Positions 14,750 through 57,841 of a DNA stretch of 64,000 nt are shown here, one piece after another. The notes beneath the pieces are model-generated. The model saw only the letters and a program-made list of their open reading frames with translations. It had not been told where the DNA came from and did not search any database. The position numbers and the translations under genes are program-made. Source of the DNA: Aromatoleum aromaticum EbN1 (GTDB lineage: Bacteria; Pseudomonadota; Gammaproteobacteria; Burkholderiales; Rhodocyclaceae); NCBI RefSeq assembly GCF_000025965.1, contig NC_006513.1, positions 372,001 through 436,000 on the forward strand. Reading direction: 5' to 3'. The stretch's first letter is position 1; each line of letters begins with the position of its first letter.

Positions 14750-17106
14750 CTACCGAATCCCTGGACCTTTTCAGCAGTCTCCCGCCAGCGCCGCCCTCTC
14801 CACCCGCTTCCGCCGGCAACGAGGCTTTGCCCCCCGGCGACGGCCCGCTGCCACTCGACCGCCACGCCGAGCGCGCCTACCTCGCGTACGCGATGAGCGT
14901 CGTCAAGTCACGCGCGCTGCCGCAGGTCGAGGACGGCATGAAGCCGGTGCAGCGGCGCATCCTCTACGCGATGAACGAGATGCGCCTGTCGGCGGCGTCG
15001 AAGCACGTCAAGTCGGCGCGCGTTGTCGGCGATGTCATCGGCAAGTACCACCCGCACGGCGACACCAGCGTCTATGACGCGATGGTGCGCGTCGCGCAGG
15101 ACTTCTCGCTGCGCTACCCGCTCGTCGACGGCCAGGGCAACTTCGGCTCGCGTGACGGCGACTCGGCCGCGGCGATGCGCTACACCGAATGCCGGCTGAC
15201 GCCGATCGCGGAACTCCTGCTTGCCGAGATCGACCGCGGCACCGTCGACTTCGTACCGAACTACGACGGCGCGTTTCATGAGCCGCAGCTCTTGCCGGCC
15301 CGCCTGCCGTTCGTGCTGCTCAACGGCGCCTCGGGGATTGCCGTCGGCATGGCGACCGAGATCCCGCCGCACAACCTGCGCGAAGTCGCCGACGCCGTCT
15401 GCCACCTGATCCGGCATCCCGACGCCGGGCTCGACGACGTCCTGCCGCTGCTGCCCGGTCCGGATTTCCCCGGCGGCGGCCAGCTGATCTCGTCGGCCGA
15501 CGCGATCCGCGACGCTTACGCCGGCGGGCGCGGCAGCCTGCGCATGCGCGCTCGCTGGCACGTCGAGGAACTCGCCCGCGGGCAGTGGCGCGTGATCATC
15601 GACGAATTGCCGCACGGCGTGTCGGCCGCCAGCGTGCTCGCGGGAATCGAGACGCTCACCAACCCGCAGCCGCGCGGCGGCAAGAAGGACGTCAGCCAGG
15701 AGCAGAAGAACCTCAAGCAGCTCGTGCTCGGCGTGCTCGAGACGGTGCGCGACGAGTCGAGCGACAAGTCGCCGGTGCGCATCGTGCTGGAGCCGCGCTC
15801 GTCGCGCCAGAGCCGCGACGAGTTCATGGCGGTGCTGCTCGCGCACACCAGCCTCGAAAACTCGGTGTCGGTGAACATGACGATGATCGGCCATGGTCCC
15901 GTGCATGGCGGCCGGCCGCAGCAGAAGAACCTCGTGCAGATCCTGCGCGAGTGGATCGACTTCCGCTATGTCACCGTCGAGCGGCGCACGCGTCACCGCC
16001 TCGACGAAGTCGACCGGCGCCTGCACATCCTCGCAGGCCGGATGATCGCGTTCCTGCACATCGAGGACGTGATCCGCGTGATCCGCGAATCCGACGAGCC
16101 GAAGCCGGCGCTGATCGATGCGTTCGGCCTGTCCGAGATCCAGGCCGAGGACATCCTCGAGATCCGCCTGCGCCAGCTCGCGCGCCTCGAAGGCTTCCGC
16201 ATCGAGAAGGAGCTCGCCGAACTCAAGGAAGAGCGCGAGAAGCTGCAGCACCTGCTCGACAGCCGCGCGGCGATGACGAAGCTGATCCTCAAGGAGATCA
16301 CCGACGACGCGAAGAAATACGGCGACGAGCGGCGTACGCTGATCGAGAGCGTCGCCGCCGTCGCTCCCGCCGAAATCAGCGTGCCCGACGAGCCGGTGAC
16401 GGTGATCGTGTCGAAGAACGGCTGGGTACGCGCGCGCCAGGGCCACGGCATCGACGCCGCGGCCGTCACGTACAAGGCGGGCGACTTCGCGTTCGCGCTC
16501 GTCGAGACGCGCAGCACGTGGCCGCTCGTCGTCCTCGACACGCACGGCCGCGCTTACACGATACGCGTCGCCGAGCTGCCGGGCGGGCGCGGCGACGGCG
16601 TGCCGATCGCAACACTGGTCGACTTCCAGAACGGCGCCAAGCTCGCGCAGGTCGTCTCTGCCGAACCCGAGTCGGCCTGGATGTTCGCCAACTCCGGCGG
16701 CTACGGTTTCATCTGCACGCTCCTCGAGGCGACGAGCCGCCAGCGCGCCGGCAAGGCGTTCATGACCGTCGAGAAAGGCGAAAAAGTGCTGGCGCCGGCG
16801 CGCGTGCTCGGCGAGCGCATCGCCGCGGTGTCGGAGAACGGCCGCCTGCTGGTGTTCCCGCGCAGCGAGATGAAAGTGCAGGCCGGCGGCCGGGGCGTCA
16901 TCGTCATGGCGCTCGACGAGGGCGAATCGATGGTCGCGGTCGCGGCGCCGGCCGATGAAGCGGTGCTGAAAGTCGCAGGCATCGGCCGCGGCAACAAGGC
17001 GACGAGCGTCGACCTGAAACCGGCGCAGCTCGCGACGCTGGTCCACCGCCGCGCGCGCAAGGGCTCGCCGCTGGCGATCAGGATCAAGCCGCTAACGCTG
17101 GGCTGA
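14746..17106 (+). CDS. parC: DNA topoisomerase IV subunit A
   Basis: DNA-cleaving subunit of topoisomerase IV (786 aa). The catalytic tyrosine is Y146 in [13 protein letters not shown]. The quinolone-resistance region reads [15 protein letters not shown], with Thr107 at the position of E. coli Ser80 and Asp111 at Glu84, both chemically similar. A conserved tower and coiled-coil region follows ([18 protein letters not shown] in this protein with E for D), then beta-pinwheel repeats at the C-terminus. The first 35 residues are a proline-rich lead not conserved in the family. The ATG overlaps the vapC stop, an unusual coupling. Confidence 0.94.
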
Positions 17107-17141
17107 TCTTTCGGCCATGACGCCCTTCAAGTATTGACGGC

Positions 17142-17176
17142 GTAAGCACCCGGTTTTCTAAGAACCGGGTGCTTAC
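17142..17176. repeat. Perfect 14-bp inverted repeat after parC
   Basis: GTAAGCACCCGGTT and AACCGGGTGCTTAC are separated by 7 bases. There is no T-run on either side, so it is not a classical terminator, but it lies 36 bases after the parC stop at the left edge of the defence-like island. It may be a Rho-assisted terminator or a small palindromic repeat. Confidence 0.6.
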
Positions 17177-17310
17177 AGATCTGAAACGGCTGCTGCGACG
17201 TTTCACTTCCCCCCATTTTCGATAGGACTCCTGCATTTTCCGCACATGCTTTTGCTACGATGCACTGACACGGGCACGCCGCTTCGCGCAGGCCTACAAG
17301 AGTGAGGCCA

Positions 17311-20208
17311 ATGTTCAATGCCGAATGCCTGACACCGCATCATGCGAAGTATTACGCTTGGGAGCTGACTCGTCGCCACGCGGCTAGTGAGGAGGGCCGT
17401 CTCTCCCAATCGCTGTTCGACGCCAGCGTCGACCTCAACCCTCACCAGATCGACGCGGCCCTCTTTGCCCTGGAGAACCCCCTCAGCAAGGGAGTCATGC
17501 TTGCCGACGAAGTCGGTCTGGGCAAGACCATCGAAGCGGCGCTCGTCATGTGCCAGCTGTGGGCGGAACGGCGCCGGAGGCTGCTGGTAATCTGCCCCGC
17601 CGCACTGCGCAAACAATGGGCGCAGGAGCTTTCCGACAAATTCAACGTTCCCGCACAGGTGCTCGACGCACGGACCTGGCTCCGGCTCCGCCAGGAGGGC
17701 ATCTACGAACCGCTCGATCGCGACGTCATCAGCATCATGTCGCTGAACTTCGCGGCCCGCATGGAAGCGCAGCTAGGCTCCGTTCCGTGGGATCTCGTGG
17801 TCATCGACGAGGCGCACAAGCTGCGCAACGCACACCGCAAGAGCCACGAGACCGGCCAGTCGCTCAAGCGCTCGCTGGCGGGGCGACGCAAACTGCTGCT
17901 GACGGCGACGCCGCTGCAGAACTCCTTGCTGGAGCTCTACGGACTCAGCTCCCTGATCGACGAAGACATCTTCGGCGACGAACGCAGCTTCCGCGCCCAA
18001 TACGGCAACAGCGGCGGCGACCTGATCGCCCTGCGCCGCCGCCTGCAGCCCTTCGTCAAGCGCACCTTGCGCAAGGACGTCCTCGAATACGTGCCCTACA
18101 CCCGGCGCCATGCGCTCACGACGCCGTTCACGCCCAGCGACGACGAACAAAGGCTGTACGACCTCATCTCGGCCTATCTCCAATGCGACTTCAGCTACGG
18201 TTTTCCGCAACGTCAGAAGCACCTCGTCGCGCTCATCCTGCGCAAACTGCTGGCCTCTTCGACCGAAGCCGTCGTCACGACACTGGAAGCCATTCGCGAT
18301 CGCCTGCAGAAGCTGTTCGAACGCCAGAGCATCGGCGCGGATTGGTTCGAGCACCTTGTCGAGGGCGACGAGCTCGACGAGGAGCTGCTCGAGGCCGCGG
18401 CAGAAGACGCCGAGGCCGCGGCCGCGGCCGGCGAAAACCCGGCTGGCATCGACTTCGACCTGCTGCGCAGCGAGATGGTCGAGCTCGACACCTACATCTC
18501 GATCGCCCATGGCATCCGGGAAGACCAGAAATCCCATGCCCTGCTGAACGCACTGGAACAGGGCTTCGCCCGCCTGGCCGACATGGGCGCGCCGCGGAAG
18601 GCAGTGATCTTCACCGAATCCCGCCGCACACAGGAATACCTCGCCCGCTTCCTCGAAGCCCACGGCCACGCTGGAAAGGTCGTCACCTTCAGCGGTGGCA
18701 ACCAGGGCACCGGCGCTACCGGCATCTACCAACGCTGGCTCGCGCGCTACGCCGGAAGCGACCGGGCCACCGGTTCTCCGGCGGTGGACCGCCGCACCGC
18801 GCTCATCGACTACTTCCGCGAGCACGCCGAAATCCTGATCGCCACCGAAGCGGCTGCCGAGGGCGTGAACCTCCAGTTCTGCTCGCTCGTCGTAAACTAC
18901 GACCTCCCCTGGAATCCTCAGCGCGTCGAGCAGCGCATCGGCCGCTGCCACCGCTACGGCCAGCGCTTCGACGTGGTGGTCATCAATTTCCTCAACCAGC
19001 GCAACGAAGCGGACCGGCGCGTGCTGGAACTGCTGCAGGACAAATTCCGGCTGTTCGACGGCGTCTTCGGCGCCTCCGACGAAATTCTCGGGCGCATCGA
19101 AGCCGGCATCGATTTCGAGAAGCGCATCGCCGAGATCTACGACCGCTGCCGCACGCCTCAGGAAATCGACGCCGCCTTCGCCGACCTGCGCGCCGAACTC
19201 GATGCCGACATCCAGGCCCGCATGCAGGAAACCGAAAAACTCCTGCTCGAACACTTCGACGCCGACATCCACAACCTGCTGAAAACCCACCGCGAGCGCG
19301 CCGAAACGCAGATCGACCGCATCTCCCGGCTGTTCTGGCTGCTCACCCGCCACGTCCTGGCCGGCAAGGCGCGCTTCGACGCCCGGCAGCTCGCCTTCGA
19401 CCTCGCCCTGCCGCCCCTGCCGCATATCCCGGCCGGGCACTACCAGCTCATCCGCAAGGGCGAATCCGCCAGGCAGGCGCCGCCCGAACACACGCGGATC
19501 TACCGCCTCACCCATCCCCTCGGCGAATACGTACTCGACCAGGGGCGCAACGCCGCAGCCGCCGACGCCACCCTGCAGTTCGACTATGCCCGCTGGCTCG
19601 AAGCACGCAATCCCCGCATCAGCGTCATCGAACGACTCGTCGGGCAGAACGGCTGGTTGCAGCTCAACCTGCTCGAACTCGACAGTTTCCAGCGTGAAGA
19701 ACATCTGGTCTTCACTGCGCAGGCCGACAGTGGCGAACTCCTCGACCAGGAAACCTGCGAAAAACTGTTCCAGCTCATGGCATCCGTCCAGCCCGCCGCC
19801 GGTGCAGCGCCGGAAGCCTTGCACGGCAACGCCCGCCGCCAGCTCGACGCCGCCCTGAGCCGCGCACTGGAGCAGAACGACAAGTACTTCCAGCAGGAAC
19901 GCGAAAAGCTCGACGCCTGGGCCGACGACCGCATCCTCGCCGCCGAACAGGCGCTGCAGGACACCAAGCTCAGGCTCAAAGGCCTCAAACGGCAGGCCCG
20001 CCTGGCCCAGAGCATGGACGAAGCCCGACGCATGCAGGACGAAATCCGCAGGGCCGAAGGCGAACAGCGCCGGCAGCGCCAGGAGATCTTCGCGGTGGAA
20101 GACGAGATCGAAACCCGCCGCGACGCCCTCATCGAGGCACTCGAAAAGCGGCTGCACCGCGCCAGCCGCACCCACACGCTGTTCACCGTGCGCTGGACGG
20201 TGCGCTGA
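17311..20208 (+). CDS. SNF2/RapA-type helicase of a defence-like island
   Basis: A 965-aa superfamily 2 ATPase. Motif I ADEVGLGKT is at 65-73, motif II DEAH at 146-149, motif III TATPLQNS from 178 and motif VI QRIGRCHRYG at 541-550, so both RecA lobes are complete. A charged coiled-coil tail covers about residues 830-940. RapA/DrmD-like enzymes of this form translocate on double-stranded DNA and occur in phage-defence loci such as class 1 DISARM, but no drmA or drmB is present here. ATG at 17311 follows GTGAGG; a GTG three codons upstream is also open. It is separated from the fic gene by a 190-base repeat array. Confidence 0.85.
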   Translation: MFNAECLTPHHAKYYAWELTRRHAASEEGRLSQSLFDASVDLNPHQIDAALFALENPLSKGVMLADEVGLGKTIEAALVMCQLWAERRRRLLVICPAALRKQWAQELSDKFNVPAQVLDARTWLRLRQEGIYEPLDRDVISIMSLNFAARMEAQLGSVPWDLVVIDEAHKLRNAHRKSHETGQSLKRSLAGRRKLLLTATPLQNSLLELYGLSSLIDEDIFGDERSFRAQYGNSGGDLIALRRRLQPFVKRTLRKDVLEYVPYTRRHALTTPFTPSDDEQRLYDLISAYLQCDFSYGFPQRQKHLVALILRKLLASSTEAVVTTLEAIRDRLQKLFERQSIGADWFEHLVEGDELDEELLEAAAEDAEAAAAAGENPAGIDFDLLRSEMVELDTYISIAHGIREDQKSHALLNALEQGFARLADMGAPRKAVIFTESRRTQEYLARFLEAHGHAGKVVTFSGGNQGTGATGIYQRWLARYAGSDRATGSPAVDRRTALIDYFREHAEILIATEAAAEGVNLQFCSLVVNYDLPWNPQRVEQRIGRCHRYGQRFDVVVINFLNQRNEADRRVLELLQDKFRLFDGVFGASDEILGRIEAGIDFEKRIAEIYDRCRTPQEIDAAFADLRAELDADIQARMQETEKLLLEHFDADIHNLLKTHRERAETQIDRISRLFWLLTRHVLAGKARFDARQLAFDLALPPLPHIPAGHYQLIRKGESARQAPPEHTRIYRLTHPLGEYVLDQGRNAAAADATLQFDYARWLEARNPRISVIERLVGQNGWLQLNLLELDSFQREEHLVFTAQADSGELLDQETCEKLFQLMASVQPAAGAAPEALHGNARRQLDAALSRALEQNDKYFQQEREKLDAWADDRILAAEQALQDTKLRLKGLKRQARLAQSMDEARRMQDEIRRAEGEQRRQRQEIFAVEDEIETRRDALIEALEKRLHRASRTHTLFTVRWTVR

Positions 20209-20336
20209 CGTGTCGCCGAAAACACGTTTCGACGACATGTTTTCGGGTCATGTCGTCGCCGGCGACACGTTGCACAAACGTGTCGCCAAAACGCGAGAAC
20301 AGCGACACGTTATCGCGACATGTTTACACTGACGAC
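20208..20336. repeat. Array of CGACAYGTT repeats between helicase and fic genes
   Basis: At least seven copies of a unit close to GCGACAYGTT, in both orientations, lie within about 125 bases. Inverted pairs are CGACGACATG/CATGTCGTCG (20230-20239 with 20249-20258) and GGCGACACGTT/AACGTGTCGCC (20261-20271 with 20277-20287). Direct copies are at 20302-20311 and 20315-20324. The first copy overlaps the helicase stop codon. It looks like a multi-site operator or a protein-binding array. Confidence 0.8.
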
Positions 20337-20340
20337 ACGA

Positions 20341-20367
20341 GACGGCGCGCCCCAACGGCGCGCCGTC
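20341..20367. repeat. Perfect 11-bp hairpin before fic
   Basis: GACGGCGCGCC and GGCGCGCCGTC flank a 5-nt loop. No T-run follows. It lies between the CGACAYGTT array and the fic ATG and could act in the leader as an RNA structure or partial terminator. Confidence 0.65.
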
Positions 20368-20398
20368 TGTCATCGCGCACTGCAACAGGACCACCTTC

Positions 20399-21520
20399 AT
20401 GACCATCACTCCTCCCCGCTGGCAGGCAGACGTCCCCTACAACGCCCTGCCGCCGATCCCGCCGGGAGTCGAACTCGAAACGAAGGCCGTGCTCAAGCGC
20501 TGCATCGACGCGCGCAGCGCGCTGGCTGAGCTCAAACAGGCGGCCGGGCTGATCCCGAACCAGACCGTGCTCATCAACACCATCCCGCTGCTCGAAGCCA
20601 AGGACAGCTCCGAGATCGAGAGCATCGTCACCACCACCGACCTGCTTTTCCGGCATGCTCAGGACGGCGACAACCAGGCCGACCCCGCCACGAAGGAAGC
20701 CTTGCGCTACCGCACGGCCCTGCACCGCGGCTTTCACTCCCTGACAGAACGCCCCCTGTGCACCGGCACGGCAGTCGAGATCTGCCGCATGCTCAAGGGC
20801 GTCGACATGGACATTCGTCGCACCCCGGGCACGCAACTCGCGAACGACCGCAGCGGCGAGATCATCTACACCCCGCCGGAAGGCGAAACCCGCCTGCGCG
20901 AGCTCCTCGCCAACTGGGAACGCTTCCTGCACAACGAAACCGGCCTCGACCCGCTCGTCCGCATGGCCGTCGGACACTACCAGTTCGAAGCCATCCACCC
21001 GTTTTCCGACGGCAACGGCCGCACCGGGCGCGTGATCAACATCCTCTACCTGATCCACGAAGGCCTGCTCACGCTCCCCATCCTGTATCTCAGCCGCTAC
21101 ATCATCGCGCACAAGGCCGATTACTACCGCCTGCTGCTGGACGTGACCCGCGAACAGGCGTGGGAGCCCTGGCTGCTGTACATGCTCACCGCGGTGGAAG
21201 AGACAGCACGCTGGACGGGCGCGAAAATCGCCGCCATCCGTGCGCTCGCCGAACACACCACGGGCTTCGTGCGCGAGCGACTGCCCAAGACCTACTCGCG
21301 CGAACTGGTGGACGTGATCTTCGAGCAACCCTATTGCCGCATCGGCAACGTCGTCGACAAGCAGATCGCCCAACGTCAGGCGGCCTCACGCCACCTCAAG
21401 GAACTCGTCGCGATCGGTGTGCTGCGCGAAGTCCAGGTCGGCAAGGAAAAGCTCTTCATCCATCCCAAACTGATGCAGTTGCTCATCCGCGACAGCAACG
21501 ACTTCACGCCCTACGCCTGA
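20399..21520 (+). CDS. Fic-domain protein (probable AMP-transferase) in the island
   Basis: A 373-aa Fic protein. The active-site loop HPFSDGNGRTGR is at residues 200-211, with the catalytic His200 and complete anion-binding residues. The N-terminal Fic_N region has SSEIESIVTT (70-79), whose Glu74 corresponds to the inhibitory glutamate that blocks ATP in class II Fic proteins. The C-terminal 90 residues resemble a winged helix, so it may also bind DNA. Fic enzymes usually AMPylate protein hydroxyls. ATG at 20399 has AGGA upstream. The mod gene starts 15 bases downstream, so it belongs to the same operon. Confidence 0.88.
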   Translation: MTITPPRWQADVPYNALPPIPPGVELETKAVLKRCIDARSALAELKQAAGLIPNQTVLINTIPLLEAKDSSEIESIVTTTDLLFRHAQDGDNQADPATKEALRYRTALHRGFHSLTERPLCTGTAVEICRMLKGVDMDIRRTPGTQLANDRSGEIIYTPPEGETRLRELLANWERFLHNETGLDPLVRMAVGHYQFEAIHPFSDGNGRTGRVINILYLIHEGLLTLPILYLSRYIIAHKADYYRLLLDVTREQAWEPWLLYMLTAVEETARWTGAKIAAIRALAEHTTGFVRERLPKTYSRELVDVIFEQPYCRIGNVVDKQIAQRQAASRHLKELVAIGVLREVQVGKEKLFIHPKLMQLLIRDSNDFTPYA

Positions 21521-21535
21521 AGCAACCCGGAACGC

Positions 21536-24500
21536 ATGACCATGAGCAAGCACAAAGAACGATTCATCGAACTGCTGAACGAGCTCTTCCAGCTCAACCA
21601 GCCCGAGCTCGACTTCGGCCTCTACCGCATCCTTCACGCCCGCAGCGCGCAGATCAAGGCCTTCATCGACACCGAACTGGGTGCCGAAATCGACGCGCAG
21701 TTCGCCGGCGAATCGCAGGCCGGCGCGCACGACGCGTTGGAAGCCGCCCGCGTGCGCGTGGCCGAAACCCTCGGCGAAGACGTCTTCCTGCCCACCGGCC
21801 AGCTCAAGCCCGAATACCGCGTCACCAAGGTCGGCAAGGAATTCGAGCTCGCGCAGCAGCGCGCACGCGAAGGCGGCGGCGTGCTGGCAGACGACGCGCA
21901 GGTGTACGACCACCTCTACCGCTTCTTCAGCCGCTACTACGACAAGGGCGACTTCATGTCGAAGCGCTACTTCGTCGCCGAGAACGACAGTCGCGCCGCC
22001 CCCTACGCCATCCCCTACGACGGCCGCGAAGTGATGCTGCACTGGGCCAACAAGGACCAGTACTACATCAAGTCCAGCGAAACCCTGACGAATTTCAGCT
22101 TCGATCTCGCCACGGCGCAGGCGCGGGCGCAGGGCGCGCAGGCCGGTTTCGACTTCGACATGCGCAGCGATGCACCGCTCAAGGTGCACTTCCGCCTCGC
22201 CGCTGCCACCGAAGGCGAACACGACAACGTCAAGGAAGGGCAGGAGCGCTTCTTCATCCTGCATGCCGCGGAACCGCTGCGCCTCGAAACCGGCGCCACC
22301 GGCCAGCCCGAACTGGTGATCCAGTTCGACTACCGCCCGGACCCCGAAAAGACCGGGCAGGCCGGCACCTGGCAGCAAAGACGCCTCGCCGAAGCCGAAC
22401 AGGCCGTGCGCGAACGGCTCCCAGCCTTCGCTACGGAACACCCGCTGGCGCGCGCCTTCGAACAGCCCCTGTTCGCCCCCGCCCCCACCGAGAAGCAGCC
22501 GAACCGCACGCTGCTGGCCAAGTACCTCGGCCAGTTCACCGCGCGCAACACCATGGACTACTTCATCCACAGGAACCTGGGCGGCTTCCTGCGGCGCGAG
22601 CTGGATTTCTACATCAAGAACGAAATCATGCGCCTCGACGACATCGAGGCCGCCGACGCGCCGCGCGTCGAGGACTACCTGACGAAGCTGCGCGTGCTGC
22701 GCCGCATCGCCCGCCGCATCATCGACTTCCTCGCCCAGCTCGAGGACTTCCAGAAGAAGCTGTGGCTGAAGAAGAAGTTCGTCGTCGACACCCAGTACTG
22801 CATCACGCTGGACCGCATCCCCGAATCCTTCTACCCGGAGATCGCCGCCAACGAGCGGCAGCGCGAGGAGTGGGTGAAGCTGTTCGCGATCGACGAGATC
22901 GAGGGGGATATGGCGCAGCCGGGGTACAGCGTGCCGCTGGCGGTGGAGTTCCTCAAGGCGAACCCTTTTCTACAAATCGACACGAGCTTTTACGACGCCA
23001 ATACAAAATCACGGATACTTGCGAGCCAAGAAAATCTTGATCAATCCTGCGACGGTGTTTTGCTTCACGCCGAAAATTTCCAGGCACTGAATTTCGCACA
23101 TAGCCGACTCAACAGGCAGATCAAAGCAGTTTACATTGACCCCCCCTACAATACTGACGCAGGGCCAATCGCTTATAAAAATGGCTACCGGAGCTCTTCA
23201 TGGTGCGCGCTAATTGCAGATCGTTTGGCTGCGACGCCCCCCTTGATGAGCATTGACGGCGTACTGTGCGCAACGATCGATGATTACCAGCAGCGAGAAT
23301 TAAGCTACCTGCTTGAGCAACAATTTGGGCAAGACAGTTTACTTGGAACAATTGCCATTCGAATTAATCCATCTGGCCGGCCTGTTCCGAGTGGATTAGC
23401 TCAGGCGCACGAGTATGCCATTTTTGCCAGAGCGACTTATCTTGGCGAATTGGATAAACTTCCACGCAGCGATAAGCAGGCCGCACGATACAAGCACGAG
23501 GACGGCGATGGAAATTTCATGTGGGAGTTATTCAGAAAGCGCGGATCCGGTTCTGAGCGAAAAGATCGCCCTTCTTTATTCTATCCACTTTATGTCAAAG
23601 GCGAGACGATCCGAGTACCTCAAATGCGATGGGACGATGATCGACGCATCTGGACCGACATCACCCCACCGGAAAACGGAGAGCTAGTTGCCTACCCACT
23701 TGACGAAATTGGAACCGAACGTCGGTGGCGCGGAAAACCAGAAAGCATTAGAACCTCACCCGAAAATTACAAGGCAAAGGTAGATACAAACGGATCAATC
23801 ACGATTTATTACAAGTTCAGACCGGGCTCCGAAGGAGTTCTTCCCCCTACGAACTGGATCGATGCAAAATACTCCGCGACCGAGCATGGGACGGGGGTAT
23901 TGAAACACTTTTTCATCGGAACATGTCCATTCACCTATCCGAAATCGATCTACGCTGTAGAGGATTGTCTTCGCGTTTCTGGAATGGGCAAATCGCATTT
24001 TGTACTGGACTATTTCGGGGGCTCCGGCACAACTGGGCATGCGGTGATTAACCTCAATCGAGAGGACGGTGGGAGACGAAAATATGTACTTATCGAAATG
24101 GGAGCGTACTTCGATACAGTTCTTAGACCGCGCATTCAAAAAATTGCGTACTCCAAGACTTGGAAGGACGGAAAACCGGTTTCGCGCGACGGTATCAGCC
24201 ACTGCTTCAAATACCTCCGCCTCGAATCCTTCGAAGACACGCTGAACAACCTGCAACTGCCCGAGCAGCCGCCGCTCGACCTCGGCTCGCCCGAGACCCG
24301 CGACATGGCGCGCGACTACCTGCTGAAGTACTGGCTGGACTTCGAGACCGCCGGCAGCCCCAGCCTGCTCAATGTGCGCGAGTTCGCCGACCCCACCGCC
24401 TACCGGCTCAAGGTGAAGCAGCCCGGCAGTGACGCGCAGGTCGAGCGCGCCGTCGACCTCGTCGAGACCTTCAACTGGCTGATCGGCCTGCATGTGGCGC

Positions 24501-24901
24501 TGCTCGACCAGCCGCGCCGCTACGCCGTCGAGCTGGTGCGCGAGCCCGACCCCGACCTGCCGAAGGACCAGCGCACGCGCTGGCGCGCCACCTCGATCAA
24601 GGAACGCGAAGACGGCGAATTCTGGTTCCGCTGCGTCGAAGGCCATGTGCTGGCCGTGCCTGGCGACGAGCGCTCGCGCGAGCGCGTGCTGGTGATCTGG
24701 CGCAAGCTCGGCGGCGACCCCGGCCGCGACCAGGCCGCGCTGGAGGCGTGGCTCGGCAAGCGCGGCATCAACCCGCGCGACAGCGAGTTCGACTGGATCT
24801 ACGTGAACGGCAGCCACGCGCTCCCCAGCGACGGCACTGCCGCCACACGCGTGCGCCTGATCGAGGACACTTTCGCGCAGTGCATGTGGGAGGACGCCTG
24901 A
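21536..24901 (+). CDS. Type III-like DNA methyltransferase (Mod), mosaic
   Basis: An 1121-aa site-specific DNA methyltransferase. Motif IV DPPYNT is at 535-540 and motif I FGGSGTTG at 827-834; this order is that of beta-class N6-adenine/N4-cytosine enzymes with the target-recognition part between them. A large N-terminal domain (residues 1-470) has no motif I recognise and makes the protein much longer than classical Mod subunits. DNA from about 22968 to 24180 is clearly lower in GC than its surroundings: 23161-23220 counts 30/60 G+C, while 22681-22740 counts 42/60. This block holds motif IV, the recognition region and motif I, pointing to module exchange. The AAA gene starts 1 base after the stop. 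Confidence 0.88.
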   Translation: MTMSKHKERFIELLNELFQLNQPELDFGLYRILHARSAQIKAFIDTELGAEIDAQFAGESQAGAHDALEAARVRVAETLGEDVFLPTGQLKPEYRVTKVGKEFELAQQRAREGGGVLADDAQVYDHLYRFFSRYYDKGDFMSKRYFVAENDSRAAPYAIPYDGREVMLHWANKDQYYIKSSETLTNFSFDLATAQARAQGAQAGFDFDMRSDAPLKVHFRLAAATEGEHDNVKEGQERFFILHAAEPLRLETGATGQPELVIQFDYRPDPEKTGQAGTWQQRRLAEAEQAVRERLPAFATEHPLARAFEQPLFAPAPTEKQPNRTLLAKYLGQFTARNTMDYFIHRNLGGFLRRELDFYIKNEIMRLDDIEAADAPRVEDYLTKLRVLRRIARRIIDFLAQLEDFQKKLWLKKKFVVDTQYCITLDRIPESFYPEIAANERQREEWVKLFAIDEIEGDMAQPGYSVPLAVEFLKANPFLQIDTSFYDANTKSRILASQENLDQSCDGVLLHAENFQALNFAHSRLNRQIKAVYIDPPYNTDAGPIAYKNGYRSSSWCALIADRLAATPPLMSIDGVLCATIDDYQQRELSYLLEQQFGQDSLLGTIAIRINPSGRPVPSGLAQAHEYAIFARATYLGELDKLPRSDKQAARYKHEDGDGNFMWELFRKRGSGSERKDRPSLFYPLYVKGETIRVPQMRWDDDRRIWTDITPPENGELVAYPLDEIGTERRWRGKPESIRTSPENYKAKVDTNGSITIYYKFRPGSEGVLPPTNWIDAKYSATEHGTGVLKHFFIGTCPFTYPKSIYAVEDCLRVSGMGKSHFVLDYFGGSGTTGHAVINLNREDGGRRKYVLIEMGAYFDTVLRPRIQKIAYSKTWKDGKPVSRDGISHCFKYLRLESFEDTLNNLQLPEQPPLDLGSPETRDMARDYLLKYWLDFETAGSPSLLNVREFADPTAYRLKVKQPGSDAQVERAVDLVETFNWLIGLHVALLDQPRRYAVELVREPDPDLPKDQRTRWRATSIKEREDGEFWFRCVEGHVLAVPGDERSRERVLVIWRKLGGDPGRDQAALEAWLGKRGINPRDSEFDWIYVNGSHALPSDGTAATRVRLIEDTFAQCMWEDA

Positions 24902-24902
24902 C

Positions 24903-26009
24903 ATGGACCAGCCGCCTAGCCTGCAGCGCGTGGCCCTGCGGGGGTTCCGCTCGATCCGCGCGATGGATCTCGAACTCGGGCCACTGAATGTGCTGATCGG
25001 CGCCAACGGCGCCGGCAAGTCGAATTTCATCAGCTTTTTCAGGTTCATGAACAAGCTGCTGGACAAGGATCTGCAGTTCTACGCCCAGCAGCAGGGGGGG
25101 GCGGACCGGATTTTGCATTTCGGCCGCAAAACGACCGATAAGCTGGAAATTGAACTCCGCTTTACCCTCAACGGTTACGCGGCCGTCCTCGCTCCCACGC
25201 CGGATAACCGTCTGGTGTTCAGGGACGAGTTCCATGCCCCGCCCGGCCTGAAGCCGCCGGCAAAGGGCGGTGACGGCGCCTATCGCAAGCGACGGACGCG
25301 CCTGGGGCGCACCGGCGCGGAAGAATCGGCACTCCCCAAGCCGGACATCACGACGGAACGCGGGCGCCTCGCCGCCTTTCTTGCGGACTGGAAGACCTAT
25401 CATTTCCACGACACCAGCGACACCGCCAAAGTGAAGGGCACTTGCAGCGTGCACGACACGACACGTCTGCGATCCCAGGGCGAAAACCTCGCAGCCTTCC
25501 TTTACGGCATCCGCGACACCGACGCCTACGCACGCATCGTCCGGACCGTCCAGCGCGTGGCACCCTTTTTCCATGACTTCGTGCTGCAACCGGACAACAG
25601 CGACTGGATCCGCCTGCGCTGGAAGCACAAGGGCAGCGACGACTATTTCGACGCGTCCATGCTGTCGGACGGCACGCTGCGCTTCATCTGCCTCGCCACG
25701 CTGCTGCTGCAACCGCGCCTCCCGACCATCATCCTGCTCGACGAGCCGGAGCTTGGCCTGCATCCCTACGCCCTGCAGTTGCTGGGCGCCATGATGCGCA
25801 TGGCCAGCACGCGGACCCAGATCGTCGCAACGACCCAGTCCGTAACGCTGGCCAACGAATTCGGCTGGCAGGACATCGTGGTCGTCGACCAGATCGACAA
25901 CGCATCGCGTTTCCGGCGCCTTGAGGAACAGGCGGTCGGGCACTGGCTGGAGGATTACCGCGTCGGCGAGATCTGGGAGATGAACCTTCTCGGGGGCAAC
26001 CCGGCATGA
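24903..26009 (+). CDS. AAA/ABC-type ATPase paired with DUF4276
   Basis: A 368-aa ATPase of the AAA_15/AAA_21 (SMC/OLD-like) kind. Walker A is GANGAGKS at 33-40, the signature-like LSDGTLRF at 254-261 and Walker B LLDEPELGLHP from 278, followed by the TTQSV switch. The N-terminus SLQRVALRGFRSI is typical of these defence ATPases. Pairs of such an ATPase with a Toprim-like DUF4276 or DUF4435 partner occur as independent defence modules (PARIS is one such pair, with DUF4435). Here the pair lies inside the mod-res operon, overlapping the next gene by 4 nt. The role as sensor or trigger is inferred. Confidence 0.85.
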   Translation: MDQPPSLQRVALRGFRSIRAMDLELGPLNVLIGANGAGKSNFISFFRFMNKLLDKDLQFYAQQQGGADRILHFGRKTTDKLEIELRFTLNGYAAVLAPTPDNRLVFRDEFHAPPGLKPPAKGGDGAYRKRRTRLGRTGAEESALPKPDITTERGRLAAFLADWKTYHFHDTSDTAKVKGTCSVHDTTRLRSQGENLAAFLYGIRDTDAYARIVRTVQRVAPFFHDFVLQPDNSDWIRLRWKHKGSDDYFDASMLSDGTLRFICLATLLLQPRLPTIILLDEPELGLHPYALQLLGAMMRMASTRTQIVATTQSVTLANEFGWQDIVVVDQIDNASRFRRLEEQAVGHWLEDYRVGEIWEMNLLGGNPA

Positions 26010-26614
26010 TCCGTCTCGGCATCAGCGTCGAAGGGGCGACCGAGCGCGAATTCATCCTGCAGGTGCTGGCCCCGCACCTGGCTCGTTACGGCGTGTTCGC
26101 AAGCCCGGTGGACATGCGCGGCAACGTCAGCCGCGACCGCATTCGCGGCGCACTACCGCACCTGATCGCCAGTTTCGACCACGTCAGCACCCTGTACGAC
26201 TATTACCGCTTCAAGCAGCGGGAAACGCTCTCGGTCGACGCGTTGCAGGCGACCATGCTCGAACTGGTCGCCCCTGCGCAGCGCCGGCATTTCACGCCCT
26301 ATATCCAGCTGCACGAGTTCGAGGCCCTGCTATTCGCAGTCCCCGAACTGACCGTGCAGACACTGGGCGGAACCGAAAGGCAACTGCACGCCCTGCGGGC
26401 CGCTGTGGAAGCTTGCGGCTCGCCGGAAGCGGTTAATGACAGGCCCGAAACCAGCCCATCCCACCGGCTGCTTGCCCTGTTCGGCAGGGATTACGAAAAG
26501 CCGTTCCACGGGCCGGAAGTTCTGCGCATCGCCGGCTTGCCCGCCATACGGGCTCAATGCCCGCGCTTCGACGCCTGGGTGACCCGACTCGAAAACCTGG
26601 GAGGCCGAGCATGA
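26006..26614 (+). CDS. DUF4276 family protein, probable Toprim-like effector
   Basis: A 202-aa protein of the DUF4276 family. The start MIRLGISVEGATEREFI carries the conserved glutamates (E9, E13), and HEFEALLF at 103-110 is the second family signature. Known or predicted relatives are Toprim-like and are often encoded after an AAA ATPase. The middle segment HVSTLYDYYRF contains the single Asp where Toprim folds have DxD, so metal ligands may be reduced. It overlaps the ATPase gene by 4 nt and res by 4 nt. Enzymatic activity is not established by sequence. Confidence 0.82.
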   Translation: MIRLGISVEGATEREFILQVLAPHLARYGVFASPVDMRGNVSRDRIRGALPHLIASFDHVSTLYDYYRFKQRETLSVDALQATMLELVAPAQRRHFTPYIQLHEFEALLFAVPELTVQTLGGTERQLHALRAAVEACGSPEAVNDRPETSPSHRLLALFGRDYEKPFHGPEVLRIAGLPAIRAQCPRFDAWVTRLENLGGRA

Positions 26615-29600
26615 GCCGCGCCCCACGCCGCACCAGGACGCAGCCGCCGCTCGTCGCCAGCCACTTCCAGGACGCGCTGGTGCTGAACCAGTACCTGCTC
26701 AGCCTGTTCGGCATCGACCCGCTGGCGCCGCACCGCGACGGCGGCCGCCCAGCGCGCCCGCTGGAACTGATCGCCAAGACGCTGCGCGATGCCGAACCGG
26801 GCATCGGCCCCGACGGCCGGCACCGCTTCCTCGCCGAGCTGATCTCGCATCTGCCGAAGAACTCGACCCTGACGCCGGCGGCGCTGGCGCGCTTCGACGC
26901 CAATCTCGTCGCACATACGCAGGCGATCAACGCCCGGCGCCGGCACAAGGGCGAGATCGCGTGGAAATACTTCCAGTGGCTGACGCTGCTGTTCGTGGAG
27001 ATCTACCTCGACCGCTACTTCAACGACCGCCAGGGCCTGTGCGCGGCGCTCAACGACTTCGTCGAACGCTTCAACCGCCACCATCTGGCGCAGGGGCGCG
27101 AGACGGGCCTGACGCCGTATGCCGTCGAGGACCTGAACAAGCTGTGCCTGCAGAACGCCACCGGCAGCGGCAAGACCCTGCTGATGCACGTGAACCTGCG
27201 CCAGTTCGCCCATCACGCGCGCGCCACCGGCCAGGCCGACAGCTACAGCCGGGTGATCGTGCTGTCACCGAACGAGCGCCTGACCGCACAGCACGAACGC
27301 GAGCTGCGCGACAACGGTTTCTACCCGGAAGCGCTGCGCCAGGAAAGCGACCTGGTGTCGCGCGGCCAGAGTGCCCTCGACATTCCGCTGCTGACCGAGA
27401 TCACCAAGCTCGCCGAAGAGCAGAAGGTGAAACAGATGGCCGTCGACAGCTTCGGCGATGCCAATCTGCTGCTGGTCGACGAGGGCCACCGCGGCATGAG
27501 CGGCAGCGACTGGAAGGGCAAGCGCGACAAGCTGGCCGCGAAGGGCTTCACCTTCGAGTATTCCGCCACCTTCAAGCAGGCGGTGCGCGCCGCCAACGAC
27601 CGCGTGCTGGCCGAGAACTATGCCAAGGCGGTGCTGTTCGATTACAGCTACCGCTATTTCTACGCCGACGGCTACGGCAAGGACTACCGCATCTTCAACC
27701 TGCCGGGCGACGAGCTGGCATACAAGGACACCTACCTGACCGCGGCCCTGCTGGCCTTCTACCAGCAGTTGCGGATGTTCGCCGAAGCAGGCAGCCGCTA
27801 TGCCGGCTACAACCTTGAAAAGCCACTGTGGGTGTTCGTCGGCGCCAGCGTGACCGGGCGCAAGGTGGACGAGGAAAGCGTGTCGCCGTCCGACGTGGCG
27901 CAGATCCTCGATTTCCTCGCACGCTTCCTCGCCCGGCGCGAGGAATTCATCGGCCTCGTCCGCAGCGTGCTCACCGGCGACAGCCAGCAGACCGGCCTGC
28001 TCGACGCGCACGGGCGCGACATCTTCGTGCGCTCCTTCCCGTATCTGAAGGGGCTGAAACAGGATGCCGCGCAGATTTACGCGGATATCTGCGTGCGCCT
28101 GTTCCACGCGCCGGGCGGCGGCCATCTCGTCGTCGAACGCGTCAAGGGCGACAGCGGCGAACTGCTGCTGAAGGTGGGCGAGTCCGACACGCCGTTCGGG
28201 GTCATCAACGTCGGCGACGCCGCGGCGCTCGCCAAGCACGTGCAGGAGGCGCTCGAGCACAAGCAGTCCCTGACCGAAGTGCGCCCGAGCGAGTTCGGCG
28301 AACCGGTTTTCGGCGACGTGCATAAACCGACCTCGCCGATCCACCTGCTCGTCGGTTCGAAGAAGTTCATCGAAGGCTGGGATTGCTGGCGTGTATCAAG
28401 CTTGGGGCTGATGCGCATGGGCCAGAGCGAGGGCGCCCAGATCATCCAGCTCTTCGGGCGCGGGGTGCGGCTGAAGGGCAAGGACATGAGCCTGATGCGC
28501 ACCAGCCGCTATCAGCCGGTGAACCCGCCGCGGGATATCCACTTCCTGGAGACGCTGAACGTGTTCGGCGTGCAGGCGGACTTCATGGCGACCTTCCGCG
28601 ACTTCCTCGAAAGCGAAGGCTTGCCGCCGAACGATGTGCCCCACGTCGAGGAGATCACGCTCAACGTCACCCACGATTTCGGCCAGAAGCTGAAGATCCT
28701 GCGGGCGAAGCTCCGCAGGGACACGCTGGAGCAGTACGACTTCCGCAAGCATGGTCCGGTAGTCGAATTCGGCCTCGCGGCACTGCCGCCGAGCCTGACG
28801 ATAGGAGGGGTGCCGCTGGTGGTGGATCGCTTCCCGCGTTTGCAGGTGATCCAGGCTGCGGAGATTACCGGGGAGGCTGTCGACGCCCCGGTGTCGGGAC
28901 CTCGCCATTTCGACGCCTTGCGCCTCGTGATGCTGGACTGGGACAAGCTGTGGTTCGATCTGGAGCGTTTCCGCCGCCAAAGACACTTGGAGAACGCCAT
29001 CGTGCCCCGCGATGCGCTCCGCCCTCTGCTGGAAAAGCCGGACTGGTACTGCGTCCTGGTGCCCACGCAGTGGTGGGCGCCGTCGATGGGGAACGTTCGG
29101 CACTGGCAGTCGATTGCCGTTGAACTGCTGAGCGCCGCCCTCGAGCGCAGCTTCAATTACCAGAAGCGCAAGTATCTTGACCCGCGCATGGAGCTGGTAC
29201 CGCTGACCTGCGACCATGAGAACCTGCCCGCGGACGGCACAGACTATCAGCTCATCGTCGAGGCAAACGAGCAGTACCTGATCGACGACATCAAGGCGCT
29301 GAAGGAAGAGCTCGCGCAAGTAGGCTGGCGCGACCACGGCCACGTCCAGGGCGTGCGGTTGGCGATGCACCTGTATGAGCCGCTGCTATCGAGCGAGAAA
29401 GTGAAGATCCAGCCGGTCGGCCTAAACAAGTCCGAGTTCCGCTTCGTCGAAGACCTCCGGCTTTGGCTGCAGACCAACGCGGCGGACGTAGAGACGCGCG
29501 GGGAGCGCCTGTTCCTGCTGCGAAACCTCGCCAAGCAAGGCGTGGGCTTCTTCGAGGCCGGAAACTTCTACCCGGACTTTATCCTGTGGTGCCTGAAAGC

Positions 29601-29889
29601 CGACGGCAGCCAGCGAATCTGCTTCATCGACCCTCATGGGCTGGAGCATGAAGGACCGGGCAGCGACAAGATTCAGCTCGCCGAGAACATCAAGGATCTT
29701 CAGGCGCGCCTGAACGACAAGACTGTCACGCTCGAATCCATCATCTTGTCGCCTAATACCAACCGCATGCGCATCGAGCATCTGTGGACACAAAAAGGCC
29801 TTCCTCGGCCCGACCTCGACGCGCTTCACGTGTACTTCATCGGCGAAGGCGACTACCTGGCCAAAGTCATGAAGGTAGTTATCGAGTAG
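26611..29889 (+). CDS. Type III-like restriction subunit (Res), helicase-nuclease
   Basis: A 1092-aa DEAD/DEAH-type enzyme of the type III restriction Res family. Walker A ATGSGKT is at 183-189, the DEGH box at 290-293, then EYSATF, and the second RecA lobe includes [14 protein letters not shown]-terminal nuclease-like stretch reads YPDFILW (Asp989) followed by CFIDPHGL (Asp1007, His1009), which matches PD-(D/E)xK spacing but has His where Lys is usual. ATG at 26611 overlaps the DUF4276 stop; a longer upstream start would run inside that gene. With Mod it would form a restriction-modification pair. Confidence 0.87.
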
Positions 29890-29912
29890 CCCCTGTTCGC
29901 AATCATTACCTC

Positions 29913-30330
29913 ATGAAAACGCAAAAATACGCCGTTAATCAGTACCTTATTGAAAGCATGCTCGCCAAAGTGAAAGAAGGCGAGATTGCCATCCCGGAAA
30001 TCCAGCGCCCCTTCGTCTGGGACGGCACCCAAGTGCGGGATCTTCTGGACTCGCTGTACCAGGGCTTCCCCGTCGGATATCTGATCGCTTGGCGGAATCC
30101 GGATGTGAAGCTGAAGGACGGTTCGACCGCATCCGGGAAGATGATCCTGATCGATGGCCAGCAGCGGGTAACTGCGCTGACTGCCGCGGTGCTCGGTGAG
30201 CAGGTGGTGAACAAGGACTACAAGAAGACGCGTATCACCATCGCCTTTCATCCGGTCAACGAACGTTTCGAGGTATGCAACACAGCGATTCGCAAAGACA
30301 GCGCGTGGATTCCTGACGTTGCGCCGGTGG
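29913..30330 (+). pseudogene. DUF262 protein gene, 3' truncated
   Basis: The N-terminal part of a DUF262 (GmrSD/ParB-like NTPase) protein starts at ATG 29913, 23 bases after res. The family signature [20 protein letters not shown] and the DGQQR motif (in [16 protein letters not shown]) are intact, so the first 130 or so residues are normal. Resemblance ends near IPDVAPVV at about 30330, and the frame then runs backwards through the motD remnant to a stop at 30365. DUF262 proteins are usually 350-700 aa, so most of the gene is missing. It would have been the last member of the island operon. Confidence 0.8.
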
Positions 30331-30786
30331 TCGCGCCCGGCCTTCTTCGTTCGTATTGTCGGTGAGCGGCCGCTGGTCGGCATAGCCGGCGGCGGTGAGG
30401 CGATCACCGCGCACCCCGGCGTCGATGAACAGGCGCACGACCGACGACGCACGCACCGTCGACAACTCCCAGTTCGACGGGAAGCGTTCGGTGCTGATCG
30501 GCACGCTGTCGGTGTGGCCTTCGACGGTGATCGGGAAATCCGCACCGGCGAGCACCTGCGCGACAGCTCGCAGCACCGCGACCGCCGGCGCGCCGAGCGT
30601 CGCGTCACCGGGCGCGAACAGCACGCTGGCGTTGATCTCGACGGTGATTCCATGCACGCCTTCGGCAACGCTGACCTGTCCGCCTGCGGTGAGCGGCTGC
30701 AGTACGCGGCGTATTTCGTCCGCCATGCTGTTGATGCGCTGCATTTCGGCTTCGCGCCGGGCGTCAGGGGTGCGACGACGCGACAT
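30330..30786 (-). pseudogene. motD: motD remnant (flagellar motor OmpA-like domain), both ends damaged
   Basis: The OmpA-like peptidoglycan-binding domain of a MotB/MotD stator protein is recognisable: INASVLFAPGDATLG, VEGHTDSVPIST and RFPSNWELSTVRASSVVRLF. The N-terminal membrane helix and plug that MotD must have are absent: the frame begins MSRRRTPDARREAEMQRINS 16 bases outside the IS1182 end. The C-terminus stops resembling MotD after NEEGRAR, where the sequence passes into the DUF262 fragment. It cannot encode a working stator subunit. Confidence 0.75.
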
Positions 30787-30936
30787 GGGCGGGGCTTGCG
30801 GCTAGCAGCGTGTCGGACTTGAGCACCGCCGGCGCTGTATCCGGGGGCTTGATTTCACAATGTGAGAAACGGTCGGCATTTCAGGTTCCAATCAGCGGTT
30901 TCCTGTCCGAAATCGCAATGCCCCTGTCCTTTTTTC

Positions 30937-31942
30937 TCACTGCGGACGCAATACGGCCATGCGCTTCAAGTTCCACGCCAAGCACACCAGGGTCCACTCG
31001 GCGCGCACGTTGTCGAGCCCGCGCAGCAGGAACTGGCGAAATCCCATCACCGACTTGATGATGCCGAACACCGGTTCCACGGTCTGTTTCCGGAGCGCGT
31101 AGGCGGCGCGGCCGGCCCGGGTCTTGAGGGCGTGCTTCATCTGTTCGACGGGGCTGGCGGGCTGCTCGAGCGGGGCGGGCTCTTCGAAGCGGCGGCGCCA
31201 ATCCGGATGGTGCTCGTCGCGCCCGACCGCGATCAGCGGTTCGATCCCGGCGGCCTGGCAGCGCTCGACGTTGCGCTCGCTGAAGAAACCGGTGTCGGCC
31301 AGCAGTTGGTCGGGCTGATTGAGCCCTTCGGGCAGGGCCGCGATGCGGGCCAGCATCGGCTCGACCTGCTCCTTGTCGTTGCCCGCCTGGGTAAGGTGGG
31401 GCACCATCACCAGCATCGACTCCGTATCGACCAGCGCCTGCGCGTTGTAGCACTGCTCGAAGCCGCCGCCGGTCACTTTCATGATGCGCGAGTCTTCGTC
31501 GGTCAGATTGAGCTGGTCGTCCGCGCGCGGACCGGGGGCAGGCGGGGTCGGCGGCTTGCCGCCGGGCTTCTTGCCGGTGGCCGCCGCCTTGGCCTGACGC
31601 TTGGCCAGCTTGGCATCAAACTCGGCCTGTTCGCGCTCGAAGCGCTCCTTGGCGCGCGCTTCGATCTTGGCCTTGGCGGCCGCGATGGCGGCCAGCCGGT
31701 CTTCTCGGCGCTGGATCTCCGCGGGCAGATCCACGCCCTCGGGCACGCAGCTCCGATCGGCCGCTTCGGCCAGCGCGAGCATCTCCTGCACTTCGGCCTT
31801 GAGCTGGGCCTCGATCTTCTCGGCGTGCCCATACGAGAGCGCGCTGTGTCGGCTGGCGTTGGCGTGGATCTTGGTACCGTCCAGGCTCACGGTGCCAAAG
31901 CGCGAGAGCTGGTTCTCGCGGGCGACTTGCAGCACCTGCACG
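30937..31942 (-). pseudogene. IS1182-family transposase, C-terminal part
   Basis: The C-terminal 332 residues of a DDE transposase, including LSRFGTVSLDGTKIHANASRH, LLADTGFFSERNVE and the final EPVFGIIKSVMGFRQFLLRG block that carries the catalytic glutamate. Removing the IS66 element and one CGTGCAGG copy joins it in frame to the N-terminal part at 34366-34726 (DAFVQ joined to VLQVAREN), giving an intact 452-aa protein. A proline/glycine-rich stretch lies in the middle. Confidence 0.88.
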
Positions 31943-31970
31943 GTAAGCGGTAACTGACGAGCGTTCTTGA

Positions 31971-33587: not shown

Positions 33588-33615
33588 GGCGTCATTTTAC
33601 CAAAAAAGCCAGCAT

Positions 33616-57677: not shown

Positions 57678-57841
57678 TTTGCCGTAATTTAGCTTTCTGC
57701 AGCTTTACCTAAATTTCTCAAGCTGTACTTACCTTTATAATTCAAGCAATTAAAGCAGTGGCCAGCTTAACGTAGTTTGCTGTACCTTTCTCTAGCGTGC
57801 TTACATAGCGCTTACAATGCGCCTAGCCAGGGAGAGTGAAT

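What the first reader, a model, noticed from the sequence alone, without database searches (positions are those of the whole stretch)
17311..30330. Candidate undescribed composite defence system: SNF2 helicase, Fic, Mod, AAA, DUF4276, Res, DUF262
Seven + strand genes are packed with gaps of 15, 1, -4, -4 and 23 bases from fic onward. A type III-like Mod/Res pair is combined with an SNF2/RapA helicase, a Fic enzyme and an AAA/DUF4276 pair of the kind that works alone in other defence loci. DISARM class 1 shares only the helicase and methylase; drmA and drmB are absent. I know of no described system with this exact set. Mod/Res could be the restriction core, with Fic and AAA/DUF4276 as abortive back-up.
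Basis: partly seen in the sequence, partly recalled or inferred. Interest (0 to 1): 0.78.

Follow-up and report, generated by a model that had tools for sequence, protein, structure and literature searches.

The report
Restriction system carrying swappable defence genes
A bacterium carries a known three-gene phage-restriction system into which other, separate defence genes have been slotted like cargo, one of them apparently bringing its own genetic switch; it is a new arrangement of known kinds of parts rather than one new seven-gene machine.

Summary
The seven genes, strands and gaps are as described, but the last (DUF262/GmrSD) is a deletion remnant, about 140 of 598 codons. They are not one conserved system. 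Of the 80 best loci seeded by Mod alone, none has the seven-gene order. Conserved is a three-gene core: SNF2 ATPase 5' of Mod in 42 of 51 loci with at least 5 kb upstream, Res downstream in 74 of 74 evaluable. [quoted passage not shown] PMC8259958). The Mod-Res gap is 350 bases or more in 35 of 74 loci; 33 of these hold an ORF of 100 aa or more, among them AAA/DUF4276, RhuM, Gabija, DUF1016 and GmrSD proteins. DUF4276 is predicted to be an OLD-type Toprim domain. Mod's catalytic module is swapped between near-identical flanks. Fic carries an operator-like TGTCG/CGACA array that also precedes stand-alone SoFic genes; my searches showed no description of it. Verdict: new variant of a known kind.

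The parts
17302..20208 (+). SNF2/RapA-like ATPase (968 aa), core component; start may be GTG 17302 or ATG 17311
   Evidence: PF00176/PF00271; 55% identical to the SNF2 5' of mod in E. coli B4103-1; Walker A, DEAH and motif VI residues conserved in at least 90% of 49 aligned sequences
20209..20398 (+). SNF2-fic gap with operator-like array: 8 TGTCG/CGACA sites, six in the 22-18-12-18-22 register, then a TTTACACTGACG block and a hairpin
   Evidence: 0.84 sites expected per 190 bases at the window's own frequency
20399..21520 (+). SoFic-type Fic adenylyltransferase with C-terminal SoFic domain (373 aa), accessory module
   Evidence: NF046030 642.8 bits over a cut-off of 550; PF21248, PF13784, PF02661; HPFSDGNGR motif read in the sequence
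21536..24901 (+). Long type III Mod (1121 aa), core component; residues ~478-822 (DNA) or ~481-880 (protein windows) are a swapped catalytic/recognition module
   Evidence: PDLC03646, PF01555; D535, P536, P537, D825 and G829 in 75 of 75 aligned sequences
24903..26009 (+). OLD-like ABC ATPase, AAA_21 (368 aa), accessory module
   Evidence: PF13304, HEC-01A; Walker A, signature and Walker B residues conserved in at least 90% of 13 aligned
26006..26614 (+). DUF4276 protein (202 aa), predicted Toprim-fold partner of the ATPase
   Evidence: PF14103, HEC-01B; model pLDDT 91.3; nearest solved fold the OLD C-terminal region; E9, D65, E104, E106 in 13 of 13 aligned
26611..29889 (+). Type III Res helicase-nuclease (1092 aa), core component
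   Evidence: PDLC03654, PF04851; P988-D989 and D/E1007 in 62 of 63, then H (37) or K (24) of 63 at 1009, H in the window
29913..30332 (+). 5' remnant of a DUF262/GmrSD-type gene (about 140 of 598 codons)
   Evidence: PF03235 112 of 199 positions; 598-aa homologue in L005; deletion junction 30322-30332
30322..30805 (-). Remains of motB, right-hand neighbour of the insertion site
   Evidence: OmpA domain; DNA match to L005 motB in two pieces; motB lies close to parC in 7 of 16 other same-genus genomes

Best explanation
This is a chromosomal defence island between parC and motB, built on a three-gene type III restriction-modification core (SNF2 ATPase, long Mod, Res) of the Eco86II/BspHIV group, with separate defence modules lodged in its gaps. 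Mod marks host DNA at an asymmetric site set by its swappable central module; Mod-Res cuts unmarked invading DNA after ATP-driven sliding between sites (inferred from the characterised type III enzymes). The SNF2 role is unknown; most likely it clears proteins from DNA or strips the complex (inference). The embedded modules are (a) a SoFic AMPylase that acts as an infection-triggered toxin and, through its winged-helix domain, probably represses its own promoter at the array; (b) an OLD/PARIS-like ATPase plus Toprim nuclease pair as a fail-safe; (c) a broken GmrSD gene. Shown here: gene content, conserved core, variable cargo, specificity-module swap, array conservation, Toprim fold prediction. 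Inferred: restriction activity, toxicity, operator function.
For: 42 of 51 Mod-seeded loci with 5 kb or more upstream have the SNF2 5' of Mod; 74 of 74 evaluable have Res 3'. The 8 places with an SNF2 of 55% identity or more in 250 order genomes (own included) all lie 5' of a type III mod: 6, one at a contig edge and one with a short Mod/Res. E. coli B4103-1, listed in PMC8259958 Table 4 as EcoB4103II, has SNF2-Mod(1040 aa)-Res; window identities 55/32/34%. Cargo. The nearest core relatives L003/L004 (Mod 81%, Res 85%) have Mod and Res 1 base apart without AAA/DUF4276. 14 of 16 AAA places in the order have no Mod/Res in the 1.5-kb flanks held. parC next to motB without an island in 7 of 16 other same-genus genomes. 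Array: 21 of 24 close SoFic genes have 3 or more in-register sites, 0 of 5 distant Fics; 10 of 12 array-bearing genomes have SoFic beside it. Module swap.
Against: Nine of 51 loci lack the SNF2, among them A. anaerobium, so it is not obligatory. In Eco86II the helicase was not needed for methylation and was not detected in the cleaving preparation (PMC8259958). Window Res has H instead of K in the nuclease motif, as do 36 others of 63. At least one of the 14 AAA places (L198) lies 3.1 kb after an SNF2 relative, so may be cargo of another core. The 80 loci are the best-scoring of 365, so more distant relatives were not examined. No phage, methylation or expression data exist for this locus. The genes from fic to res are so tightly packed that a joint function cannot be excluded from sequence.
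Confidence: 0.8

Rival explanations
1. One integrated, undescribed seven-gene defence system in which every gene is needed.
For: Tight packing with overlapping genes from AAA to res; six of the seven genes shared at the same site in A. anaerobium.
Against: 0 of 80 Mod-seeded loci have the seven-gene order; of these only A. anaerobium combines SoFic with AAA/DUF4276, and it lacks SNF2. DUF262 is truncated in the window.
Confidence: 0.05
2. Linked back-up system: the cargo modules are independent in origin but are wired to the restriction core and fire when it is inhibited or fails, as proposed for OLD/PARIS modules in BREX loci.
For: Effector-type modules recur inside the core's gaps; the same logic is argued for BREX (PMC12839542 section 35, part 1 read); in the window one promoter region before fic could serve fic to res.
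Against: AAA/DUF4276 and SoFic also occur without the window's Mod/Res nearby, so dependence on it is not required; no functional data.
Confidence: 0.3
3. A derivative of DISARM class 1 or of MADS rather than type III restriction.
For: SNF2 matches DrmD models (PADLOC E 1e-189) and, more weakly, a DrmA model (E 1e-42); AAA weakly matches MAD3.
Against: NCBIfam DrmD_b 639 bits against a cut-off of 950; MAD3 84 bits against 420. DrmA, DrmB or DrmC is the best match of none of the seven proteins; Mod and Res match type III models best.
Confidence: 0.03

Closest known systems
Type III restriction-modification, third group (Eco86II, BspHIV; EcoB4103II)
   Same: SNF2-like ATPase 5' of mod, long Mod with DPPY and AdoMet motifs, Res helicase-nuclease; near full-length homology to the E. 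coli B4103-1 locus
   Different: Window carries Fic between SNF2 and mod and AAA/DUF4276 between mod and res; Res has H in the PD-(D/E)XK lysine place; methylated base unknown
Defence genes embedded in restriction systems (e.g. DarTG2 between hsdS and hsdR, PMC12255303)
   Same: Separate defence modules lodged between modification and restriction genes
   Different: Host here is a type III system with the cargo site between mod and res
SoFic (Sofic-AS1 toxin-antitoxin, PMC12249575) and CccR (PMC9755527)
   Same: Fic AMPylase with C-terminal winged-helix domain; CccR represses its own promoter through widely spaced inverted repeats
   Different: Multi-site TGTCG/CGACA array instead of CccR's two 10-base repeats 26 bases apart; no AS1-like gene directly after fic, since mod follows after 15 bases
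OLD family / PARIS / Gabija
   Different: Toprim part is the separate DUF4276 family; the pair matches PADLOC's candidate HEC-01 best, not AriAB or GajAB

Membership tests
Type III RM, third group (Eco86II/BspHIV) | Mod with catalytic motif IV DPPY and AdoMet motif I | tested here: met
   D535, P536, P537 in 75 of 75 and Y538 in 74 of 75; D825 and G829 in 75 of 75 aligned Mods
Type III RM, third group (Eco86II/BspHIV) | Res with Walker A, DExH and PD-(D/E)XK nuclease motif | tested here: inconclusive
   ATGSGKT and VDE.H conserved in at least 90% of 63; PD and D/E in 62 of 63, but window and 36 others have H where 24 have K
Type III RM, third group (Eco86II/BspHIV) | helicase-like ATPase 5' of mod | tested here: met
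   42 of 51 loci; 55% identity to the SNF2 of the E. coli B4103-1 locus
Type III RM, third group (Eco86II/BspHIV) | methylation of one strand of an asymmetric site and cleavage near it | not testable with these tools
   needs long-read methylome and cleavage assay
DISARM class 1 | DrmD at its curated cut-off | tested here: not met
   NF038318 639 bits, cut-off 950; NF038317 273.5, cut-off 610
DISARM class 1 | DrmA, DrmB and DrmC genes | tested here: not met
   none is the best match of any of the seven proteins; the rest of the genome was not searched for them
MADS | MAD3 ATPase at its curated cut-off | tested here: not met
   NF047739 83.6 bits, cut-off 420
SoFic | SoFic equivalog and its C-terminal domain | tested here: met
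   NF046030 642.8 bits, cut-off 550; PF21248 E 5e-35
SoFic | AS1 antitoxin gene directly downstream (seen in E. coli H397; not shown to be general) | tested here: not met
   mod starts 15 bases after fic; AS1 in PMC12249575 (passages)
OLD/PARIS-like ATPase-Toprim pair | Toprim fold in the nuclease part | tested here: met
OLD/PARIS-like ATPase-Toprim pair | nuclease activity on DNA or tRNA | not testable with these tools
   needs biochemistry
HEC-01 (PADLOC candidate) | both components as best matches | tested here: met
   HEC-01A E 7e-137, HEC-01B E 1e-54

The most novel reading that the evidence does not exclude
The SoFic AMPylase is the master switch of the island: its winged-helix domain binds the 22-18-12-18-22 TGTCG array and represses a promoter from which fic, mod, AAA, DUF4276 and res are read together, so that an infection that sequesters or titrates Fic releases toxin, restriction and OLD-type nuclease at once. 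A conserved SoFic operator would be new in itself.
Probability: 0.35. Interest if true: 0.72.

Novelty: new variant of a known kind. Interest (0 to 1): 0.5.

Why it matters
The mod-res gap of a widespread type III restriction group works as a cargo bay in nearly half of the loci seen (33 of 74 hold an ORF of 100 aa or more), so reading these gaps is a direct way to find new defence modules. The array gives a concrete, testable binding site for SoFic, for which a 2023 paper states that DNA binding had not been shown (PMC10628234, passages seen). The module swap in Mod shows how this group changes its recognition sequence while keeping its frame.

Tried and rejected
Seven-gene unity was rejected on 80 loci. 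DISARM and MADS membership were rejected on curated cut-offs and missing partners. A small HTH regulator gene before SNF2 (as in E. coli L212 and Klebsiella plasmid L214) was tested as the alternative regulator: leaving out those two loci, which gave the queries, it was found in 5 of 48 scored loci without SoFic and 0 of 8 with it, inconclusive. A sigma-70 consensus scan of 17050-21600 found no promoter-like site (0, shuffles 0.3), which neither supports nor excludes a promoter at the array. A DNA-level search for the window fic in E. coli found nothing, so the array could not be checked at an experimentally tested E. coli Sofic. Structure prediction of the long Mod was interrupted and could not be repeated. 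I did not find the Eco86II locus itself in NCTC86 and used E. coli B4103-1 instead. A weaker fold match absent from the lists is not excluded.

Counts and drops: the 80 loci are the best of 365 confirmed. In one search the Fic loci L113 (the window itself), L125, L128 and L134 (start cut or partial) were left out; L007 counts as a miss because its array lies more than 300 bases upstream (4 sites seen), L119 (2 sites) and L122 (0) are true misses; five of the 21 have exactly 3 sites. In one search, 14 loci were not evaluable for SNF2 and 6 for Res. Of the 35 gaps of 350 bases or more, L016 and L022 hold no + strand ORF of 100 aa, and those of L028 and L068 hold only ORFs of 114-118 aa that may not be genes. 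In one search the ORF picker missed a few genes hidden by antisense frames (e.g. SNF2 in L063), so counts of families are from tblastn.

Literature searches whose listings showed no description of cargo between type III mod and res, or of a SoFic operator; only listings were seen, apart from the papers named. The preprint by Payne and others on guilt-by-embedding is recalled, and the idea is cited through PMC12255303 passages; the expansion of HEC as Hma-embedded candidate is recalled, from no call.
Full report
Observation. Seven + strand genes lie at 17302-30365. Family scans confirm every gene name. One point fails: the last gene is broken. Its homologue in Aromatoleum anaerobium (L005) has 598 codons. 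In the window about 140 remain, and an 11-base overlap at 30322-30332 marks a deletion of 1.5 kb that runs into motB. The open frame then continues through motB remains to 30365.

Where it sits. parC was searched in 40 relatives, 16 of them of the same genus. In 7 of these 16, parC and an inverted motB are close neighbours without any island; in one (G008, whose locus L086 is 100% identical to L005 over 5358 bases) the island is there; in the other 8 no adjacent motB was seen within the 1.5-kb flanks held. In the window and in A. anaerobium the defence genes lie between parC and motB. DNA comparison of the two islands gives 93% in parC, 89% from the end of SNF2 to Mod codon ~477, no match from 22966 to 24001, and 95.6% from 24002 to 30332. 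SNF2 (17109-20205) has no match in the A. anaerobium locus.

The core. A genome-collection scan seeded by Mod alone confirmed 365 relatives and kept the best 80 loci, from several phyla by their record titles. SNF2 lies 5' of Mod on the same strand in 57 of 80; counting only loci with 5 kb or more upstream, 42 of 51. Res lies 3' in 74 of 74 evaluable loci; 6 contigs end too early. In the other direction, 8 places with an SNF2 of at least 55% identity, own included, were found in 250 genomes of the order; 6 have the long Mod next (in the window with fic between), one has it at a contig edge and one has a short Mod and Res. Two long Mods of the same scan (G118, G089:C107) have no such SNF2 listed beside them. 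This three-gene group is in print: Murray et al. 2021 (PMC8259958, whole text read) describe Eco86II and BspHIV with a conserved helicase-like ATPase 5' of mod, associated in more than 500 genomes, not needed for methylation and not detected in the cleaving preparation. E. coli B4103-1, which their Table 4 lists as EcoB4103II, holds SNF2-Mod(1040 aa)-Res(1126 aa), and the window proteins match these along most of their length at 55, 32 and 34%.

The cargo. The Mod-Res gap is under 350 bases in 39 of 74 loci and 511 to 4575 bases in 35; 33 of the 35 hold at least one + strand ORF of 100 aa or more. The SNF2-Mod gap is 350 or more in 23 of 57. AAA and DUF4276 occur in 12 of 74 Mod-Res gaps, always as a pair. 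Twenty representatives of the other tenants were scanned against Pfam and thirteen of them against PADLOC. In the Mod-Res gap: RhuM (PDC-S05; L025), GajA and GajB together (L037), an NsnA-like GmrSD_N protein (L035), DUF1016/YhcG nuclease (L044), a GmrSD pair (L058), Abi_C (L067). In the SNF2-Mod gap: Schlafen AlbA_2 (L043), PDC-M30A (L024), HNH (L062), a weak PLD match (L070), AAA_33 (L014), GmrSD (L037). Seven of the 20 had no Pfam match. Different Fic proteins (31% identical) sit in the Mod-Res gap of L032, L055 and L070; SoFic-type Fic lies directly 5' of Mod in 9 of 80 loci. No locus of the 80 has the window's seven-gene order, and only A. anaerobium combines SoFic with AAA/DUF4276. The nearest core relatives, L003 and L004, have Mod and Res 1 base apart with no AAA/DUF4276. 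In 250 order genomes 16 AAA places were found: 15 have DUF4276 beside them (the sixteenth is at a contig end) and 14 have no Mod or Res match in the 1.5-kb flanks held. One of these 14, L198, lies 3.1 kb after an SNF2 relative on the same contig, so it may be cargo of another core.

Specificity module. Against A. anaerobium, 40-residue windows of Mod are 90-100% identical over residues 1-480 and 85-100% over 881-1120, but 5-48% over 481-880. L003 and L004 share the window's module at 62-90% over 521-880; the other relatives compared differ there and are mostly, not always, 60-98% identical outside it. Three E. coli Mods show the same pattern: 98-100% over 1-360 and 961 to the end, 8-48% over 421-900, with intermediate edges. 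The module holds both catalytic motifs, so the methylated base may change with it (inference).

SoFic array. The SNF2-fic gap holds 8 TGTCG/CGACA sites where 0.84 is expected, six of them in alternating orientation at start-to-start spacings 22-18-12-18-22. Of 24 Fic genes at 62% identity or more, 21 have 3 or more sites in this register within 300 bases; of 5 Fics at 41-52% none does. In 200 shuffles of each of the 24 close regions the highest value was 2, and 3 in one distant region. Fourteen of the 24 come from the order scan and show no match to the window's Mod, Res, AAA or DUF4276 in the flanks held, up to 1.5 kb (L120 has a short SNF2 match). A scan of 369 class genomes for the five-site pattern with up to 3 mismatches, made without regard to genes, matched 12 genomes, and its reversed control matched 1. 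Ten of the 12, own included, have a SoFic homologue of 58% identity or more at the array; G408 has only a partial 47% match and G355 none. In the own genome the pattern occurs only here. CccR, a Fic of the same architecture, represses its own promoter through two 10-base inverted repeats 26 bases apart (PMC9755527, passages), a precedent for the mechanism with a different sequence. PMC10628234 (passages) says DNA binding by SoFic had not been shown.

Mechanism. Most likely: Mod-Res restriction by the type III scheme, with infection-triggered AMPylation by SoFic and fail-safe cleavage by the OLD-like pair as separate layers. Restriction, toxicity and operator function are inferred; nothing here measures activity. 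Results against a simple reading: the SNF2 is absent in 9 of 51 loci, Res has H where 24 of 63 relatives have K, and no sigma-70 consensus is seen at the array.

Novelty. Core known, modules known or candidate, embedding in restriction systems known (PMC12255303 abstract and passages; BREX parallels in PMC12839542, abstract, passages and section 35 part 1). The parts for which I saw no earlier description are the mod-res gap as a cargo bay, the module-swap map of this long Mod and the SoFic array; the searches are named in Tried and rejected.

Noticed in passing
L163:7857-18784 (own genome G000:C1, about 1443856-1454783): A second SNF2 island in the same genome: SNF2 (45% identical), SIR2, HerA, short type III Mod (601 aa) and Res (911 aa); a SIR2-HerA pair sits between SNF2 and Mod.
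   Followed up: partly
L212:9733-20278 and L219:7504-18309: E. coli loci with SNF2, then cargo (Abi plus AIPR; AAA ATPase plus S8 peptidase), then a short DNA methyltransferase and a helicase, by their annotation.
   Followed up: no
L214:5754-15506: Bare HTH-SNF2-Mod-Res core on a Klebsiella oxytoca plasmid typed as conjugative.
   Followed up: no
window 3588-4757 (-): One ORF matches both a fatty acid desaturase and an ISL3 transposase domain, as if two genes were fused.
   Followed up: no
window 30800-33590: Long minus-strand ORFs directly right of the island look like transposases; the names IS1182-like and IS66-like are recalled, not from a call (ORFs).
   Followed up: no
window 57836-61884: Tyrosine integrase followed by an AAA_25 protein, possibly a separate mobile element.
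   Followed up: no
L025, L036, L037, L041, L064, L066, L072: RhuM-family proteins (PADLOC PDC-S05) recur in the Mod-Res gap; L025 and L041 were scanned, the others cluster with them by BLAST.
   Followed up: partly
window 20340-20370: A strong hairpin follows the array; Pseudomonas relatives have an inverted repeat of different sequence at the same place (read by eye in the sequences; not folded).
   Followed up: no
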